From Collimonas fungivorans Ter331 (GTDB lineage: Bacteria > Pseudomonadota > Gammaproteobacteria > Burkholderiales > Burkholderiaceae_D): a DNA stretch of 64,000 bases. The notes under the pieces were generated by a model. The model saw nothing but the letters and a program-made list of their open reading frames with translations. It ran no database searches and was not told where the DNA came from. Below are positions 978-8,672 of this stretch, piece by piece. The stretch is taken from contig NC_015856.1 in assembly GCF_000221045.1 (NCBI RefSeq), positions 1,928,687 to 1,992,686 on the forward strand, in the 5' to 3' direction. The translations under genes were made by a program, and so were the position numbers. The first letter of the stretch is position 1, and every line of letters starts with the position of its first letter.

Positions 978-1859
978 ATGTTAAACCGGATCGATGCAGG
1001 CGTTCTTAATGTTACCTACGCGGAGAGCGGCGATGCCGATGGCCGCGCGGTCGTGCTGCTGCACGGCTTCCCCTACGACATCCGCGCATACGACGACGTG
1101 AGTGGATTGCTGGCGGCGGCCGGTTGCCGCGTCATCACGCCGTATCTGCGCGGTTACGGTCCGACCCGTTTCCTGTCGGCTGATACGCCGCGCTCTGGCC
1201 AGCAAGCGGCGCTGGCGCATGACCTGTTGGCCCTGATGGATGCGCTGGCGATTCCCGACGCAGTGCTGGCCGGCTACGACTGGGGCGGCCGCGCCGCCTG
1301 CATCGTCGCCGCGCTATGGCCGCAGCGCGTGCGCGGCCTGGTGTCCGGCGGCGGCTACAATGTCCAGGATATTGCGGCATCGGTAAAACCGCAGGCGCCG
1401 GAAAACGAATGGCGCTACTGGTACCAGTATTATTTCCACGGCGAACGCGGCCGGGCCGGGCTGGCGCAGGACCGCTATGCCTTTTGCCAGCTGCTGTGGC
1501 GCCTGTGGTCGCCCAACTGGCGGTTCGATGAAGAGACTTACCGGCGCAGCGCCGCCGCCTTCGATAACCCGGATTTTGTCGAGGTCGTGATCCATTCCTA
1601 TCGCCATCGGTTTGGACTGGCGCCAGGCGATCCCGCGTATGAACATACGGAATCGCTGCTGGCCGCGCAGCCGCCGATCAGCGTGCCGGCCGTGGTGCTG
1701 GATGGCGCTGGCGATGGCGTCAGCCTGAGCGGCGATTCGGCAGGACATGAGCGGTTTTTCAGCGGACCGTACCAGCGCCGGGTGGTGCCGGTTGCGGGAC
1801 ACAACTTGCCGCAGGAAGCCGCGCAGGATTTCGCCGGTGCTATATTGGCGCTGCTCTGA
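978..1859 (+). CDS. Alpha/beta hydrolase, epoxide hydrolase/haloalkane dehalogenase-like
   Basis: This 293-residue cytoplasmic protein has the oxyanion motif HGFP (residues 29-32), an LRGYGPTRF strand-loop, and a nucleophile elbow GYDWGG with Asp101 in place of Ser. An Asp nucleophile in this context is the signature of epoxide hydrolases and haloalkane dehalogenases, which form an ester intermediate with the substrate. A late AGHN motif near residue 276 supplies the likely catalytic His. The ATG at 978 follows a purine-rich GGAGGGCGAGG site. No signal peptide is visible. Its substrate is unknown. Confidence 0.8.
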   Translation: MLNRIDAGVLNVTYAESGDADGRAVVLLHGFPYDIRAYDDVSGLLAAAGCRVITPYLRGYGPTRFLSADTPRSGQQAALAHDLLALMDALAIPDAVLAGYDWGGRAACIVAALWPQRVRGLVSGGGYNVQDIAASVKPQAPENEWRYWYQYYFHGERGRAGLAQDRYAFCQLLWRLWSPNWRFDEETYRRSAAAFDNPDFVEVVIHSYRHRFGLAPGDPAYEHTESLLAAQPPISVPAVVLDGAGDGVSLSGDSAGHERFFSGPYQRRVVPVAGHNLPQEAAQDFAGAILALL

Positions 1860-1881: not shown

Positions 1882-3285
1882 ATGTTGCGTCTGGTGCTGC
1901 TGCTGTTGGGTGTCGACTACTTGCGCGATCGCTGGCGCGGATTGCGGATCATCGGCTGGATCTGGGCTGTCGCAGGCGTAGTGATATTTGTCGACGCCCT
2001 GGACAATGCGCTGTATTTCCCGATCAGTTTTTTCGCCTACTTCCTGCTTGCCGAAGGCATCGCCACACTGGCGGTGGCATGGACTGGGGTTGCCGGGCAA
2101 CGCATCCTGCGCCACATCAAAGGCGTGGCGTTCATCATTGCCGCGCTGCTTATCCTGGCTGGCCACCACCACGGCAATTTCATCTTGTCGATGATTTTCG
2201 GCACGCTGTTCCTGGCCGACGGATTGCTGCAATCGATCTCGGCAACCGTGGTGCGTTATCCGCGCTGGCGGCTGGCGCTCGCCGGCGGCGTCGTCGAGTG
2301 CGCCATCGCGATTTTTTTCTACCAGCCGTATCCGACCCACTACGTCGGCACCGTGCCTTATTGCATCGGGCTGGGCCTGGCGTTCGGCGGCTGGCAGATG
2401 CTGCTGCTGGCGTACCGTGTGCGGCGCCTGTCGGCCAAGGCAACGGTCGAGTCCTTGCTGCAGAGGGCAGAGGCCAGCTCGGCCCAGCAATATGCTGGAG
2501 CGGCGGCCAAGAATACTTTGCGGGAATGGGATGGCCCGCCGGCTGCGGACGAAAAGGCCCTGACCGTCCATGTCTGGACACCGGTCGGTTCCTCGCGGAC
2601 GCCGGCGCAGCGGCTGCCGATCATTGATCGTTATATTGCCGCGGTTGACTCCGATGGCGTGATTTCCACCGGTCACGCGGCGCTTGAGACGCCTGAAGGG
2701 GTTTATATCAGCCTCTATCCGGGAGTTGAAATCGACCGCTCGCCGGATCAATTCGGGCGCCTGCTGCGGGCTACGCCGGACAACGATGTGGCAGGCGTGT
2801 TCCAGCCCGACTATCCAACCGAATCGCGCGCCTGGTGCGAATCGACCGTCAAGGTCAGGATCAGGAACTACAGCGCCGAACGGTTAAGTGCTTTTTGGGA
2901 AAACTACCGGCAGGACAATACCTACAACCTGACTTACCGCAACTGCTCGAGCTCGGTCGCGCGTGCGCTGGAAGCTGCGCTTGAGGGAGCGGCCGGCAGG
3001 ATCCGCGGCCGCAGCTGGAGCGCGTTTGTGCGGCTGCTGCTGACGCCGGAACTGTGGGTGGCGGCGCAAATCCGCAAGCGCGCAAAAACCATGGCATGGA
3101 CGCCGGGGCTGGCCCTGGATTACGCGCGCGCCATGAGCATGCTGGCGGACCCGAGGCCGTTCGGCTGGCTGAAGATGGCGCGCTTGGCGCTGCGCACCAT
3201 GTCGCGTTCGCGCCGCGCCTGGCGCCAGGAGCATGCAATGGCCAGGCAGCCGATGGCGGACAGCGAAGAAAAAATCACCTCCTGA
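1882..3285 (+). CDS. DUF308/HdeD-like membrane protein fused to a putative permuted papain-like domain
   Basis: The frame is open further upstream, but the ATG at 1882 follows AAAGGCTG and begins a plausible N-terminus, giving 467 residues. Residues 1-180 contain about six hydrophobic segments in short-hairpin order, as in HdeD/DUF308 acid-resistance membrane proteins. After a linker (about 185-245), residues 246-380 are soluble and carry a GHAALET motif (His265) followed about 90 residues later by a YRNCSS motif (Cys355). A His-before-Cys order with these flanks is what circularly permuted NlpC/P60-LRAT or DUF4105-type cysteine hydrolases show; that assignment is inference. The gene starts 22 bases after the upstream hydrolase stops and is probably co-transcribed with it. 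The last 90 residues are basic and helical, with no assigned role. Confidence 0.6.
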   Translation: MLRLVLLLLGVDYLRDRWRGLRIIGWIWAVAGVVIFVDALDNALYFPISFFAYFLLAEGIATLAVAWTGVAGQRILRHIKGVAFIIAALLILAGHHHGNFILSMIFGTLFLADGLLQSISATVVRYPRWRLALAGGVVECAIAIFFYQPYPTHYVGTVPYCIGLGLAFGGWQMLLLAYRVRRLSAKATVESLLQRAEASSAQQYAGAAAKNTLREWDGPPAADEKALTVHVWTPVGSSRTPAQRLPIIDRYIAAVDSDGVISTGHAALETPEGVYISLYPGVEIDRSPDQFGRLLRATPDNDVAGVFQPDYPTESRAWCESTVKVRIRNYSAERLSAFWENYRQDNTYNLTYRNCSSSVARALEAALEGAAGRIRGRSWSAFVRLLLTPELWVAAQIRKRAKTMAWTPGLALDYARAMSMLADPRPFGWLKMARLALRTMSRSRRAWRQEHAMARQPMADSEEKITS

Positions 3286-3303: not shown

Positions 3304-3798
3304 TTATGCCCGGCTCGCCTCTATCTTGCCTAACAGCCATTGCAAGCCAGCCAGGTGCTGCTGGTCGTGGCTGCACAGATAATGCACCAGGCTGCGCAGG
3401 GTCAGCGCACCATAACCCTCGAATTCGGCGCTGCGCTTGAACTGTTCCGGAGACAGGCTGGCAAGCAGCGCCACGGTCTGGGTGCGTGCGCCACGGAAGC
3501 TGGCGAAAACTTCGGTCGCGTCCGCCGCGCCATAAGCACGCTCGCGGGCAAGCACGTCGCTGTCGATGGAAGCCAGCAGCGGCCTGGTTTCGTCGAGGGT
3601 GCGGCGGAAGCGCAGATGGTAGCCGTCGATCTCGATGTCGCGCACATGGCAGATCTGCTCGATGGCGGTGAATGGTTCGCTGGGCACGCCATCCCAGGAC
3701 GCGGGCGTCCAATGGCGGAATTCGGCGGGAATGGCGGCGTAGTGCGCTTCCAGCTGCAGCGGGAAAGCGGCGAGGGTGTCGATGGTGATGGAATGCAT
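3304..3798 (-). CDS. DinB-family protein
   Basis: The protein is 164 residues from the ATG at 3798. The frame stays open to a TTG at 3837 and has another ATG at 3819, but the DinB four-helix start is best matched by the internal Met. Three His positions fit the metal triad of the DinB/YfiT fold: one in the EQICHVRDIE segment and two in the SHDQQHL segment near the C-terminus. The family includes metal-dependent thiol transferases and many proteins of unknown role. It converges with the DUF308 gene, with 18 bases between the stops and no clear terminator. Confidence 0.75.
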   Translation of the reverse strand: MHSITIDTLAAFPLQLEAHYAAIPAEFRHWTPASWDGVPSEPFTAIEQICHVRDIEIDGYHLRFRRTLDETRPLLASIDSDVLARERAYGAADATEVFASFRGARTQTVALLASLSPEQFKRSAEFEGYGALTLRSLVHYLCSHDQQHLAGLQWLLGKIEASRA

Positions 3799-3907
3799 GG
3801 CTGGCGCGCCTGGAGGCATGGATTTACGGACAGGCAATTATATGGCAACGCCAGAAACGCGTTGCGGCGTCGCTGTTTTTCCTTGCCATTGCGCGGCGCA
3901 TGCTTGG

Positions 3908-4678
3908 CTACGGCGCTTTTTTCCTGTCGCCCAAAAACGATGACAGCAAGTCCATCGGCAGTGGGAATACCACCGTGGTGTTCTTGTCGGCGCCGATCAC
4001 CGTCAGCGTTTCCAGGTAGCGCAGCAGGATTGCCTGCGGCTCTTGCGCCAGCACGTGGGCGGCCTGGTAGAGTTTTTCCGAGGCCTGCAGCTCGCCCTCG
4101 GCATGGATCACCTTGGCGCGCCGTTCGCGTTCCGCCTCGGCCTGGCGGGCGATGGCACGGATCATCGATTCGGTCAGGTCGACCTGCTTGATTTCGACGT
4201 TGGACACCTTGATGCCCCAGGAATCGGTCTGCGCATCGAGCGCCTGCTGGATCGCGAGGTTCAGTTTTTCACGCTCGGCCAGCATGTCGTCCAGCTGGTG
4301 CTTGCCCAGCACCGAACGCAGCATGGTTTGCGACAGCTGGCTGGTGGCGTTGAAAAAATTGGCGACTTCGACGATGGCTTTTTTTGGATCGACCACGCGG
4401 AAGTACACCACGGCGTTGACCCGCACCGAGACGTTGTCGCGCGAGATGACATCTTGCGTCGGCACCTCCAGCACGACGGTGCGCAGGTCGACCCTGACCA
4501 GCTGCTGGATCGCCGGCACCAGCAGCACCAGCCCCGGCCCCCTGACGCCGGAAAACCGTCCGAGGGTGAACACTACGCAGCGCTCATACTCCCGAAAAAT
4601 GTAAATTGCCGCGTTGAGCAGGATGAGCAGGACGAAGATGATTGCTATCAGTCCGAACCAGGCGAAATTCCAGGGCAT
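3908..4678 (-). CDS. Slipin: SPFH/band 7 membrane protein
   Basis: This 256-residue protein has one N-terminal transmembrane segment (about residues 6-28) followed by the SPFH/band 7 domain. The signature slipin stretches are YERCVVFTLGRF, VPTQDVISRDNVSV and the coiled-coil AEAERERRAKVI. Slipins assemble as oligomers on the membrane and are thought to organise lipid microdomains. An AGGAAGGAGG site sits before the ATG. Slipin genes often travel with nfeD, which encodes a membrane-bound serine protease-like partner; no nfeD is next to this copy. Confidence 0.88.
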   Translation of the reverse strand: MPWNFAWFGLIAIIFVLLILLNAAIYIFREYERCVVFTLGRFSGVRGPGLVLLVPAIQQLVRVDLRTVVLEVPTQDVISRDNVSVRVNAVVYFRVVDPKKAIVEVANFFNATSQLSQTMLRSVLGKHQLDDMLAEREKLNLAIQQALDAQTDSWGIKVSNVEIKQVDLTESMIRAIARQAEAERERRAKVIHAEGELQASEKLYQAAHVLAQEPQAILLRYLETLTVIGADKNTTVVFPLPMDLLSSFLGDRKKAP

Positions 4679-5639: not shown

Positions 5640-6326
5640 TCAGGTCTCGCTCCATTGCCGCATCAGGTTGTGATAGCAGCCGATCAGGGTGCGGCGCGCC
5701 TGTTCGTCGGCATTGGTCTGGTTCAGTTTCTGGATGGCGTTGTCCATGTCGAACAGCATGCTGCGGCGGGCATCGTCGCGCACCAGGCTTTGCACCCAGA
5801 AGAAGCAGGCGCTGCGCATGCCGCGTGTGATCGGCGTGACCTGGTGCAGGCTGGTGGCCGGATAAATCACCATGTCGCCGGCGGCCAGTTTGACCGAGTG
5901 CATGCCGTAGCTGTCTTCGATCTGCAGCTCGCCGCCGTCATACGATGCAGGATCCGACAAAAACAGCGTGGCCGAGATGTCGGTGCGCAGCTTGCGGCCG
6001 TCATGCGGATGGATGCGCACGCTGCCGTCGACGTGGGCGCCGAAAGCCATGCCTTCGCCGTAGCGGTTGAACATCGGCGGGTAGACGGTATTCGGCAGCG
6101 CCGCGCTGATAAAGCGCGGATGGCGCTCCAACGCCTGCAGGATGATCTGCTGGCATTGCTGCGCCACTTCCGAACGTTCATCGATCTGCTGGTTGAACTT
6201 GACTGCCGCGCCCTGGTAGCCGGCCGTGACGCGGCCATCGACCCAGGCCGCTCCGGCCTGGTCCAGCAACTGGCGCACGGCGTCCAGCTGCCGGGCGTCG
6301 AGCACTTCGGGAATGGCAATCAACAT
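5640..6326 (-). CDS. piuC: PKHD-type Fe(II)/2OG hydroxylase PiuC/YbiX
   Basis: This 228-residue cytoplasmic protein matches the usual length of PiuC/YbiX. It has the iron triad His98-x-Asp100 in FGAHVDGS and His161 in SLHQV, with an Arg at 171 for 2-oxoglutarate. The family is iron-regulated and nearly always sits beside a catecholate siderophore receptor; it is thought to hydroxylate or process siderophore-related substrates, but the reaction is not settled. Here it starts 15 bases after the receptor stops, so the two form one iron-starvation operon. Confidence 0.9.
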   Translation of the reverse strand: MLIAIPEVLDARQLDAVRQLLDQAGAAWVDGRVTAGYQGAAVKFNQQIDERSEVAQQCQQIILQALERHPRFISAALPNTVYPPMFNRYGEGMAFGAHVDGSVRIHPHDGRKLRTDISATLFLSDPASYDGGELQIEDSYGMHSVKLAAGDMVIYPATSLHQVTPITRGMRSACFFWVQSLVRDDARRSMLFDMDNAIQKLNQTNADEQARRTLIGCYHNLMRQWSET

Positions 6327-6341
6327 GGGCTCTTCCGTTTT

Positions 6342-8576
6342 TTACATGCGATAGTTGAGCGACAGCATTGCGGTGCGGCCGCTGCCTGGCACCGAACGTC
6401 CGCCGTCGGACTGGATCAGCGCATCGTAATACATCTTGTTGGCCAGGTTGAACAGATTCAGGCGGATATCGTATTTCGGTTGCGTATACGCCACCGTTGC
6501 ATCCCAGCGCGTATAGCCGCCGGCCTGCACGGTGTTGGTGGGATTGGCGTAGCGTTCCGACATGTAAGTGGCGCCGCCGCCGATTTCCCAGTGCGGCGCG
6601 ACCTTGTAGGTGGACCAGCTGGTCAGCGTATTCTTCGGCGTGTTGACCGGGATCTTGCCCAGCGTGCCGTCGAGGGCGGAAGACTGGATTACCTTGGCGT
6701 CCAGGTAGGTATAACCGAGTGCGACCTGCCAGTCCTTGGTGATATGGCCGACGGCGCCGGCGCGCGCGCCGTTGACCCTGACTGTGCCGTCCAGCACATA
6801 GACGCCGGTGCTGACCTGGCTGCGTGCATTTTCCTTCTTGATCTGGAAAATGGCGGCGTTGAGCGACAGCTTGTCGTTGAGCAGGTCCCACTTGCCGCCC
6901 AGTTCGTAGGAGCGATTCTTTTCAGGATCGAGGTTTTGCTGGCCGGTGGTGCCGGTCAGCTGTTCCAGCGACGGATTGAAGGAAGTGCCGTAGGACAGGT
7001 AGTACGACTGCTCCGCGCTTGGCTGCCAGATGCTGCCCAGGCGCACGCTGGTGAAATTGATGGTCTGCTGGGCTGAAGGCAGGGTAGTGTTCTTGGCAGC
7101 AGGAGGGGCATTGGTCGTGTTCAGCGAGTTGGTGATGCTGGCGATGTATCTGTCGAAGCGCAGGCCGCCGACCAGCTTGAATTGGTCGCTGAGCGTCATG
7201 GTGTCGTTGAGATAGGCGGCGATGGTGTTGGCTGAGCCGCCGGCGCGGTTGCCAGCCTGGCTGGCGACGCTGCTGCCGGCCGCGCTGTAGCCTGGATTGA
7301 CCAGCGGCACGCAGTCGTTATAACCGGCGACCGTCGAGGTCGGATTCAAGGCTTTGCCGTTGCAGCTGCCGTTGCGGTAGTGGCCCTGGTTATCGTAGCC
7401 GTCATGGCCGAGCTCGAAGCCGGCCAGCAATTCATGCTTGATGCTTCCGGTGCTGAGTTTGGCCGACAGTTCGGTCTGGTTGAAAATCGAATAGTCGCGG
7501 ATGTCGCGGTCATGGCTCTGGCCGCGGACGTACAGGCTGCTTAGTGGCAGCCCGCTGACTGCCGATGGCGTCAGCGGCGTAAAGCCGGCGGCGGAAACCG
7601 TGCCGATGGTGTTAGGCGCGGTTTCGACCGCGCTGGTGCGCACGTAATTGAATTGCGTCTGGTTGCGCAGCACGACGTCAGGCGTGATCTTGTGGCGCAC
7701 GGTAGCATTCAGCGCTGCTACATCTTGGTCGGTATGGTCGCTGTTGAGGCCGTAGGCGGTATCGCGGCCGACCGGCGCCGGATGGCCGTTGAGCGGCGGC
7801 AGGCCGTAGTCGGGCATGTCATGGTTGTGCTGGATCAGAGCCGACAAGGTGATTTCGGTCGGGGTGCCGATGCCGAATACGTAGGAACCGGCCAGGCCGA
7901 AATCCTGCACGTCGGTCTGGTCGCGCGTAGTGGCCTTGCCGCTTTGCGCCATGGCCGACAGGCGCAATGCCGAGGTATCCGACAACGGACGGTTGTAGTC
8001 TGCCGTGGTGCGCACCAGGCCGTTGGTGGTGGCCGATGCCGAGACTTCGGTCGCGGCATGCAGGTTGGCTTTCTTGGTCACCTGGTTGATCACGCCGCCG
8101 GTGGAGCCGCGCCCGAACAGCATCGACGACGGTCCCATCAGCACTTCGACTTCATCGATGGCGAAAGTGTCGCGGTAGTACTGGCCGCGGTCGCGGAAGC
8201 CGTCCAGGTAGATGTCGGTGCGCGCCGAAAAGCCATTCAGATTGATGTTGTTGCCGATCTGGCCGCCTTCGGCGCCGCCCAGGGTGATGCCGGCCACATT
8301 GCGCAGGGCATCGGCGAGCGAGTTCGCCCCTTGCGACTGCATCAGCGCCTTGTTCACCACAACCACCGATTGCGGCACGTCATGCAGGTCGGCCGGCAAC
8401 TTGGTGAGGGAAGTGGCATTGGCGTTGAAATCGCCGCGGCTGCCTTCCACCACGACTTCCTGCAGCACGGCAGGGCTGGCATCTGTTTTGGGGCTAGGGG
8501 TTTGCTGAGCGTGCGAGGACAGGGGAGCGGCGAACACTGCGACCAGCGCAGCGGCAATCGGGTTGAGGCGGTTCAT
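6342..8576 (-). CDS. TonB-dependent catecholate siderophore receptor (PiuA/Fiu-like)
   Basis: The outer-membrane receptor is 744 residues from the ATG at 8576 (a TTG at 8591 is in frame). A signal peptide ends near SSHA. The N-terminal plug carries EVVVEGSRGDF and the segment DVPQSVVVVNKALMQSQG typical of siderophore receptors, followed by VLMGPSSMLFGRGSTGG. The C-terminal barrel ends in a TAMLSLNYRM strand with a terminal Met in place of the usual Phe. It should import ferric catecholate or a mimic using TonB energy. piuC follows in the same operon, and a Fur-box-like site lies about 100 bases upstream. Confidence 0.92.
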   Translation of the reverse strand: MNRLNPIAAALVAVFAAPLSSHAQQTPSPKTDASPAVLQEVVVEGSRGDFNANATSLTKLPADLHDVPQSVVVVNKALMQSQGANSLADALRNVAGITLGGAEGGQIGNNINLNGFSARTDIYLDGFRDRGQYYRDTFAIDEVEVLMGPSSMLFGRGSTGGVINQVTKKANLHAATEVSASATTNGLVRTTADYNRPLSDTSALRLSAMAQSGKATTRDQTDVQDFGLAGSYVFGIGTPTEITLSALIQHNHDMPDYGLPPLNGHPAPVGRDTAYGLNSDHTDQDVAALNATVRHKITPDVVLRNQTQFNYVRTSAVETAPNTIGTVSAAGFTPLTPSAVSGLPLSSLYVRGQSHDRDIRDYSIFNQTELSAKLSTGSIKHELLAGFELGHDGYDNQGHYRNGSCNGKALNPTSTVAGYNDCVPLVNPGYSAAGSSVASQAGNRAGGSANTIAAYLNDTMTLSDQFKLVGGLRFDRYIASITNSLNTTNAPPAAKNTTLPSAQQTINFTSVRLGSIWQPSAEQSYYLSYGTSFNPSLEQLTGTTGQQNLDPEKNRSYELGGKWDLLNDKLSLNAAIFQIKKENARSQVSTGVYVLDGTVRVNGARAGAVGHITKDWQVALGYTYLDAKVIQSSALDGTLGKIPVNTPKNTLTSWSTYKVAPHWEIGGGATYMSERYANPTNTVQAGGYTRWDATVAYTQPKYDIRLNLFNLANKMYYDALIQSDGGRSVPGSGRTAMLSLNYRM

Positions 8577-8672
8577 TGTTTTAGTTATCAAAGGTTTAGC
8601 TTCAGGAGGCTGAAGCAGAAATTTTGGCTGGCTAATACGGTTATCCCCGTTTCACTGGCTGGCAGGCGCTGC

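What the first reader, a model, noticed from the sequence alone, without database searches (positions are those of the whole stretch)
1882..3285. DUF308/HdeD-like membrane domain fused to a putative permuted papain-like hydrolase domain
A multi-helix HdeD-type half is joined to a soluble domain with His265 in GHAALET and Cys355 in YRNCSS. The His-then-Cys order fits circularly permuted NlpC/P60, LRAT or DUF4105-type enzymes. A membrane-tethered amidase or acyl-transfer enzyme beside an epoxide-hydrolase-like gene is not a described system that I know of.
Basis: partly seen in the sequence, partly recalled or inferred. Interest (0 to 1): 0.5.

Follow-up and report, generated by a model that had tools for sequence, protein, structure and literature searches.

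The report
Membrane-anchored relative of acyl-transfer toxin domain
A soil bacterium carries a membrane protein whose inner, enzyme-like half resembles the domain that some bacterial toxins use to attach fatty acids to host proteins; here it appears to be a resident part of the bacterium's own inner membrane, and what it modifies is unknown.

Summary
Window 1882-3285 (+) encodes a 467-aa protein with an HdeD/DUF308-like six-helix half (about residues 1-182) joined to a soluble domain (about 222-430). His265 and Cys355 are conserved in 47 of 47 distinct members and 61 of 61 rows of a wider set. Of 61 distinct genes in the loci fetched, 60 carry both halves in one frame; one is split by a stop.

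The fold guess (circularly permuted papain-like) is supported. [quoted passage not shown] RID is a lysine fatty-acyltransferase. Each score alone is weak.

Loop charges place the catalytic half in the cytosol, against a peptidoglycan amidase. The alpha/beta-hydrolase neighbour is Collimonas-only. Lnb_N proteins adjoin 9 of 61 genes.

Best reading: a resident inner-membrane enzyme that moves acyl groups through Cys355. Acceptor (protein lysine or lipid) and biological role are unproven.

The parts
1882..3285 (+). Fusion gene, 467 aa: HdeD-like membrane half plus RID-like permuted papain-like domain
   Evidence: Translation; 61 distinct genes of this family in the loci fetched; AF2 model pLDDT 71.5, pTM 0.70
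1882..2427 (+). HdeD/DUF308-like half, residues 1-182, six transmembrane helices, N-terminus predicted inside
   Evidence: NCBIfam HdeD E 6.9e-4 over 9-182, below cut-off; DUF308 in 28 of 31 members; helices in the model; charge pattern
2545..3171 (+). Catalytic domain, residues 222-430, circularly permuted papain-like, RID-like
   Evidence: 5xn7 RID: sole PDB sequence hit, E 0.044, and top structural match, Z 8.7
2674..2676 (+). His265 codon, predicted general base
   Evidence: 47 of 47, 61 of 61 rows
2944..2946 (+). Cys355 codon, predicted nucleophile, in the YNLTYRNCSS motif
   Evidence: 47 of 47, 61 of 61 rows; falls on an Ala of the 5xn7 chain in the HMMER alignment
978..1859 (+). Alpha/beta-hydrolase gene 22 nt upstream, same strand; possibly co-transcribed; a Collimonas-only neighbour
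   Evidence: Pfam Abhydrolase_1 E 4e-17; BLAST relatives at E up to 1e-3 only in the Collimonas loci L001-L003 besides the window's own genome

Best explanation
The gene encodes a resident inner-membrane acyl-transfer enzyme. Six HdeD-like helices anchor it, with N- and C-termini in the cytosol, and hold a RID-like circularly permuted papain-like domain against the inner leaflet. His265 activates Cys355, which takes a long-chain acyl group from acyl-CoA, acyl-ACP or a phospholipid as a thioester and passes it to an acceptor at the membrane. The acceptor I favour is a lysine of a membrane-proximal protein, as for RID and IcsB. Shown here: the conserved fusion and the invariant His/Cys. Predicted here: inside topology by the charge rule, and fold-level relation to RID. 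Inferred: acyl chemistry, donor, acceptor, and that the HdeD half does the job that the membrane localization subdomain does in RID.
For: PDB profile search with 31 catalytic domains: one hit among 177,635 sequences at E up to 10, 5xn7 (RID), E 0.044, over the Cys motif and the TPELW segment. Structural re-alignment of 996 chains with the domain model: 5xn7 Z 8.7 (131 aligned, 3.5 A, 20% id), TseH 6v98 Z 7.7, human CLN5 6r99 Z 4.7, next 2.6. Full-length model: PPPDE1 3ebq, a permuted papain-like fold, Z 5.9 over 223-417, rank 27 behind helical matches to the membrane half (fold class per PMC10318531 passages). In 398 genomes the only non-family hit at E up to 0.001 (E 3e-4) lies between an MLD and an alpha/beta-hydrolase domain, which I read as a MARTX RID. 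Mean K+R per segment over 47 members: 3.85, 0.21, 3.19, 0.09, 3.43, 0.04, 3.53, so N-in/C-in. RID is a lysine fatty-acyltransferase that can use palmitoyl-CoA and has a membrane-targeting subdomain (PMC8339906 passages; PMC10924143 passages). A recurring neighbour is another permuted-papain (Lnb_N) protein, 9 of 61 genes.
Against: The sequence link to RID is weak: the best stretch on its own has E 0.1, and a 46-row profile gives only E 0.15, though still first. Foldseek itself gave nothing better than E 0.72 for the domain model, and none of the listed best 50 is a papain-like enzyme; the model is of modest confidence (pLDDT 64.9, pTM 0.64). Z 8.7 is a re-ranking of Foldseek candidates and only just above the tool's caution line of 8. 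The Asp of the RID/IcsB triad was not located. His-to-Cys spacing is 90 residues here against 161 in IcsB (H145, C306). No activity data exist. Four of the eleven IcsB homologues tested in print showed no IcsB-like activity in yeast, so fold does not guarantee chemistry.
Confidence: 0.6

Rival explanations
1. A lipid-directed enzyme: a phospholipase or transacylase that remodels inner-leaflet phospholipids through the same Cys-His chemistry, with no protein acceptor.
For: TseH (Z 7.7) and CLN5 (Z 4.7) are the second and third structural matches. Tox-Act1 is a phospholipase, and TseH showed phospholipase activity in a liposome fluorescence assay (PMC12994826 passages). That CLN5 acts on lysophospholipids is recalled, not from a call. 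The six-helix anchor fits a lipid substrate.
Against: RID, a protein acyltransferase, is the best match by two methods. TseH showed no activity in the mass-spectrometry assay of the same paper. Among 20 neighbouring proteins scanned, lipid-related ones are single cases.
Confidence: 0.3
2. A cysteine peptidase (PPPDE/DeSI-like) that cleaves membrane-associated proteins in the cytosol.
For: PPPDE1 3ebq Z 5.9 with the full-length model, rank 27; the Cys-His papain-like fold is compatible with proteolysis.
Against: Not among the matches at Z 2 or more with the domain model (which cannot exclude it); the leading matches there are acyl-transfer or lipid enzymes (RID; TseH; CLN5 recalled).
Confidence: 0.1
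3. A lipoprotein N-acyltransferase like Lnb of Bacteroides (Pfam Lnb_N, DUF4105).
For: 26 of 31 members match Lnb_N weakly at E up to 1, best 0.0095; the catalytic-domain HMM ranked three long Lnb_N proteins first among 36 Lnb_N proteins, 1483 decoys and 360 shuffles (E 0.0024, 0.22, 0.39); an Lnb_N protein adjoins 9 of 61 family genes.
Against: By hmmscan the window protein has 12.7 and the best other member seen, L043, 19.7 of 22.2 bits; a genome search put L043's gene at 22.2 when frame neighbours were added. Lipoprotein N-acylation is periplasmic (established knowledge), whereas this domain is predicted cytosolic. The reverse HMM search did not find the family above shuffles.
Confidence: 0.05
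4. A membrane-tethered NlpC/P60 peptidoglycan amidase.
For: NlpC/P60-superfamily fold, permuted branch.
Against: Predicted cytosolic face; in the literature the canonical members hydrolyse peptidoglycan while permuted ones are lipid-specific (PMC12994826 passages).
Confidence: 0.03

Closest known systems
RID of MARTX toxins (lysine N-epsilon-fatty-acyltransferase; PDB 5xn7)
   Same: Permuted papain-like catalytic domain, His before Cys, a membrane-targeting module before it; first in the PDB sequence search and in the structural re-alignment
   Different: Here a six-helix HdeD-like anchor instead of an MLD; a stand-alone 467-aa protein, not part of a giant toxin; no activity shown
IcsB/BopA-like k-FAT family (PMC13059803)
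   Same: His-then-Cys permuted papain-like fold; related to RID; two tested members come from environmental bacteria without a predicted T3SS, one of them active
   Different: HdeD-like fusion; longer His-Cys spacing in IcsB. HdeD and DUF308 do not occur in that paper's main text
TseH / Tox-Act1 permuted NlpC/P60 effectors
   Same: Fold class; TseH Z 7.7
   Different: Those are T6SS effectors; this one is a predicted integral membrane protein
Lnb_N (DUF4105) proteins, incl. Lnb of Bacteroides
   Same: Fold class, NC[ST] motif, neighbour of 9 of 61 genes
   Different: Below the Pfam cut-off; Pfam calls that domain periplasmic, this one is predicted cytosolic
HdeD / DUF308 membrane proteins
   Same: Six-helix half, residues 9-182
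   Different: HdeD itself is only the membrane part (model length 190)

Membership tests
RID/IcsB-type lysine fatty-acyltransferase | Permuted papain-like catalytic domain with His before Cys | tested here: met
   H265 and C355 invariant; RID first by profile search and by structural re-alignment, with modest scores
RID/IcsB-type lysine fatty-acyltransferase | Third catalytic residue, Asp between His and Cys | tested here: inconclusive
   E269 and E314 are conserved in 60 of 61 rows, but no alignment placed the Asp of RID/IcsB
RID/IcsB-type lysine fatty-acyltransferase | Carried in a MARTX toxin or injected as an effector | tested here: inconclusive
   Stand-alone 467-aa ORF with six predicted transmembrane helices, so not a MARTX domain; T3SS signals were not tested. 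I call it RID-like and do not file it as a RID effector
RID/IcsB-type lysine fatty-acyltransferase | Cys-dependent transfer of fatty acyl to lysine | not testable with these tools
   Needs biochemistry
Lnb_N (PF13387) | Score above the Pfam gathering cut-off of 22.2 | tested here: not met
   12.7 bits for the window protein; best other member seen 19.7 by hmmscan, though 22.2 with frame neighbours in a genome search
Lnb lipoprotein N-acyltransferase | Catalytic domain in the periplasm | tested here: not met
   Charge pattern predicts cytosolic; prediction only
LRAT / YaeF-YiiX | Detectable match to the family | tested here: inconclusive
   No Pfam match at E up to 10 and no row, which cannot exclude them
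HdeD/DUF308 | Score above the curated cut-off | tested here: not met
   Window protein: DUF308 13.6 of 25 bits, HdeD 19.4 of 189 bits
HdeD/DUF308 | Six-helix membrane domain similar to DUF308 over its length | tested here: met
   28 of 31 members match DUF308, best E 3.1e-6; HdeD model positions 12-188 of 190 matched; six helices
NlpC/P60 peptidoglycan amidase | Catalytic domain on the periplasmic or outer side | tested here: not met
   Charge pattern; prediction only

The most novel reading that the evidence does not exclude
Some Pseudomonadota carry a resident, membrane-built lysine fatty-acyltransferase that acylates the bacterium's own inner-membrane-associated proteins, sometimes paired with a soluble Lnb_N partner as a two-enzyme system; MARTX RID and IcsB would be weaponised relatives of this domestic enzyme line.
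Probability: 0.2. Interest if true: 0.75.

Novelty: new variant of a known kind. Interest (0 to 1): 0.5.

Why it matters
Lysine fatty-acyltransferases of the RID/IcsB kind are known chiefly as weapons used on eukaryotic hosts. A scattered relative with a conserved active site, fused to a membrane anchor, in soil and environmental bacteria suggests an endogenous use of the same chemistry and a possible link to the origin of the toxin domains. It gives a concrete and safe test system (a Collimonas or Paraburkholderia gene in laboratory E. coli with alkyne fatty acids).

Tried and rejected
Epoxide-hydrolase system: rejected; BLAST relatives of the alpha/beta hydrolase occur in 4 of 35 loci, all Collimonas, within the flanks held (up to 6 kb; several loci are shorter). 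Conserved operon: 20 neighbouring proteins scanned show no common partner apart from Lnb_N; RdgC, transglutaminase, OpgC, MFS, MgtC, lipocalin and others vary by lineage. Gene calls around the loci were made with a crude GC3-based script, so some neighbours may have been missed (the Lnb_N gene of L027 was missed there and found). Defence system: no PADLOC match for 4 proteins. Viral copies: none confirmed. Histidine loop 95-97 as a sensor: nearly invariant among close relatives but only 37-38 of 47 in the wider set. DUF308 papers on esterases: the hits are DUF3089, a false lead. First Foldseek/VIA search with the full-length model was filled by the helices. LRAT, YiiX and DUF4105 structures did not appear; that does not exclude them.

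Profile-profile comparison (hhalign) with Lnb_N: low probability, no better than column-shuffled controls; but the positive control, short against long Lnb_N, also failed (probability 3.4), so it decides nothing. All three alignments of the catalytic domain to Lnb_N nevertheless put Cys on Cys. A rank test with decoys favoured long Lnb_N in one direction and not in the reverse one. So the link to Lnb_N is at fold-class level.

Literature: Pei and Grishin 2009, Zhou 2017, Ahrens 2013 and Liu 2018 are not held. I recall, from no call, that the 2009 abstract lists 'a group of uncharacterized bacterial membrane proteins' as RID homologues; this family may be that group, so the RID link may not be new. 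Searches for prior description: HdeD with DUF4105, none; HdeD with papain, none; HdeD with membrane and fused, 15 of 21 listed, nothing on point by title; DUF308, 20 of 24 listed, nothing on point by title; the recalled phrase or 'HdeD family' with IcsB or acyltransferase, 15 of 30 listed, neither term in those 15. Papers were seen as passages only (PMC12994826, PMC10318531, PMC12904589, PMC3142127, PMC8339906, PMC10924143, PMC4431682, PMC11878206), except PMC13059803: abstract, passages, section 5 and the first part of section 9.

Full report
What is there. Window 1882-3285 (+) encodes 467 aa. The window's genome holds one copy. Residues 1-182 form six transmembrane helices in the model, after a short N-terminal helix. 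They match the NCBIfam HdeD model over 9-182 at E 6.9e-4, below its cut-off, and 28 of 31 family members match DUF308. Residues about 222-430 form an alpha/beta domain with His265 and Cys355.

Distribution. One scan of genome contigs gave 34 loci, in Collimonas, Paraburkholderia, Burkholderia, Caballeronia, Silvimonas, Amantichitinum, Glaciimonas, Bordetella, Pseudomonas, Aquabacter and two MAGs without a genus. In evenly drawn samples, 16 of 398 genomes of the window's phylum match the full-length profile at E up to 0.001, one of them (G294) only through the MARTX-like hit described below; 10 of 349 of the window's order and 7 of 289 of another class match the catalytic-domain profile at E up to 0.01. 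The gene is thus uncommon and scattered. Searching with the catalytic domain alone found no free-standing copy: 20 of 20 ORFs with a catalytic-domain hit in loci L086-L105 (some repeat earlier genes) also carry the HdeD half. Over all loci 61 of 62 rows do; L032 makes two rows there, so this is 60 of 61 distinct genes (recount); the exception, L030, is split by a stop.

Conservation. His265, Cys355, Asn354 and Arg353 are invariant in 47 of 47 members with distinct catalytic domains and in 61 of 61 rows of a wider set (60 genes, the window gene twice; L032 left out because truncated). E269, N301 and E314 are at 60 of 61. The motif order is STGHAALE ... YNLT.RNCSS. Asn-Cys at a helix start, after the His, resembles Lnb_N and other permuted papain-like enzymes.

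Fold. AF2 of the full protein: pLDDT 71.5, pTM 0.70. Its structural search was filled by helices, but PPPDE1 3ebq, a permuted papain-like fold, is at rank 27 with Z 5.9 over residues 223-417. AF2 of the domain alone: pLDDT 64.9, pTM 0.64. Foldseek gave no significant match (best E 0.72). Re-alignment of 996 of its top 1000 chains gave RID 5xn7 Z 8.7 (131 aligned, 3.5 A, 20% identity), TseH 6v98 Z 7.7, CLN5 6r99 Z 4.7, then a drop to 2.6. RID and TseH are permuted papain-like Cys-His enzymes; that CLN5 is one too is recalled.

RID by sequence. A profile of 31 catalytic domains searched against 177,635 PDB sequences returned a single hit at E up to 10: 5xn7, E 0.044, aligned from before the Cys motif to the TPELW segment, with Ala at the Cys position in the solved chain (I take this Ala to be an active-site mutant, inference). 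A 46-row profile gave E 0.15, still first of four. In 398 genomes the one hit outside the family (E 3e-4) lies in a 4627-aa ORF; the 1072 aa around it hold an MLD at 80-164, the hit at 501-572 and an alpha/beta hydrolase from 692, which I read as a MARTX RID. These hits are weak one by one but agree.

Side of the membrane. Mean K+R in the successive segments N, L1 to L5, C over 47 members is 3.85, 0.21, 3.19, 0.09, 3.43, 0.04, 3.53. By the positive-inside rule the N-terminus and the catalytic half are cytosolic. The five short Lnb_N partners scanned show no hydrophobic segment at the chosen threshold except one marginal peak (1.44) inside the L045 protein, which fits a cytosolic site; the Bordetella hinzii partner (L027), by contrast, has hydrophobic N-terminal stretches (read).

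Neighbours. The upstream alpha/beta hydrolase is 22 nt away; BLAST relatives were found only in Collimonas loci (4 of 35 with the window). An Lnb_N gene lies next to 9 of 61 family genes: L004, L025, L031, L088 upstream; L027, L045, L055, L092 downstream; L032 truncated. The eight intact partners score Pfam Lnb_N E 2e-34 to 6e-45. Among 44 genes with at least 0.9 kb held on both sides it is 6. Of the 16 hit genomes, two (G246, G344) hold an Lnb_N protein other than the fusion itself, and in both it is adjacent (726 and 161 bases between matches), which chance would hardly give. Lnb_N proteins are not rarer in genomes without the fusion (85 of 398 genomes match, one of them through a fusion gene itself), so the link is adjacency, not co-occurrence. 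The window's genome has no Lnb_N match, so the window gene has to work without such a partner.

Mechanism. RID consists of a membrane-localization subdomain and an activity subdomain and transfers palmitoyl, for example from palmitoyl-CoA, to lysines in polybasic regions (PMC10924143 and PMC8339906, passages). IcsB-like enzymes act on many membrane-associated proteins, and one active homologue (H10) comes from an environmental bacterium without a predicted T3SS (PMC13059803, abstract, section 5 and part of section 9). Permuted NlpC/P60 relatives act on lipids (PMC12994826, passages). The likeliest reading is an HdeD-anchored acyl-transfer enzyme at the inner leaflet, with a Cys355 thioester intermediate. 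Whether a protein or a lipid receives the acyl group is open; I lean to protein because RID leads by two methods.

Known or new. The fold class, HdeD and RID are known. I found no description of the fusion as a resident membrane enzyme in the searches made (partly listings only), with the caveat that Pei and Grishin 2009 (not held) may have listed this group, as I recall. I class it as a new variant of a known kind.

Noticed in passing
   Followed up: partly
L032:5650-6816: In Caballeronia udeis a truncated Lnb_N sequence runs in frame into the fusion gene, which itself stops shortly after the GHAALE motif near the contig end; looks like decay or recombination of the pair.
   Followed up: partly
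L004, L025, L031, L088, L045, L055: Short Lnb_N proteins (about 255-281 aa, stop-to-stop lengths for some); no clear membrane helix in the five scanned (L088 not scanned for this), although the Pfam domain is called periplasmic.
   Followed up: partly
window 3304-3837 (-): DinB_2 family protein directly downstream, opposite strand.
   Followed up: no
window 3908-4678 (-): Reads like a stomatin/SPFH-type membrane protein (from the translation; recalled family, not searched).
   Followed up: no
window 5640-8591 (-): A PKHD-type hydroxylase-like ORF next to a TonB-dependent receptor-like ORF (from translations, recalled families, not searched).
   Followed up: no
   Followed up: partly
window 2164-2172 (residues 95-97 of the protein): A GHHHGN loop predicted on the periplasmic side, conserved in close relatives but lost in distant ones (37-38 of 47).
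   Followed up: yes
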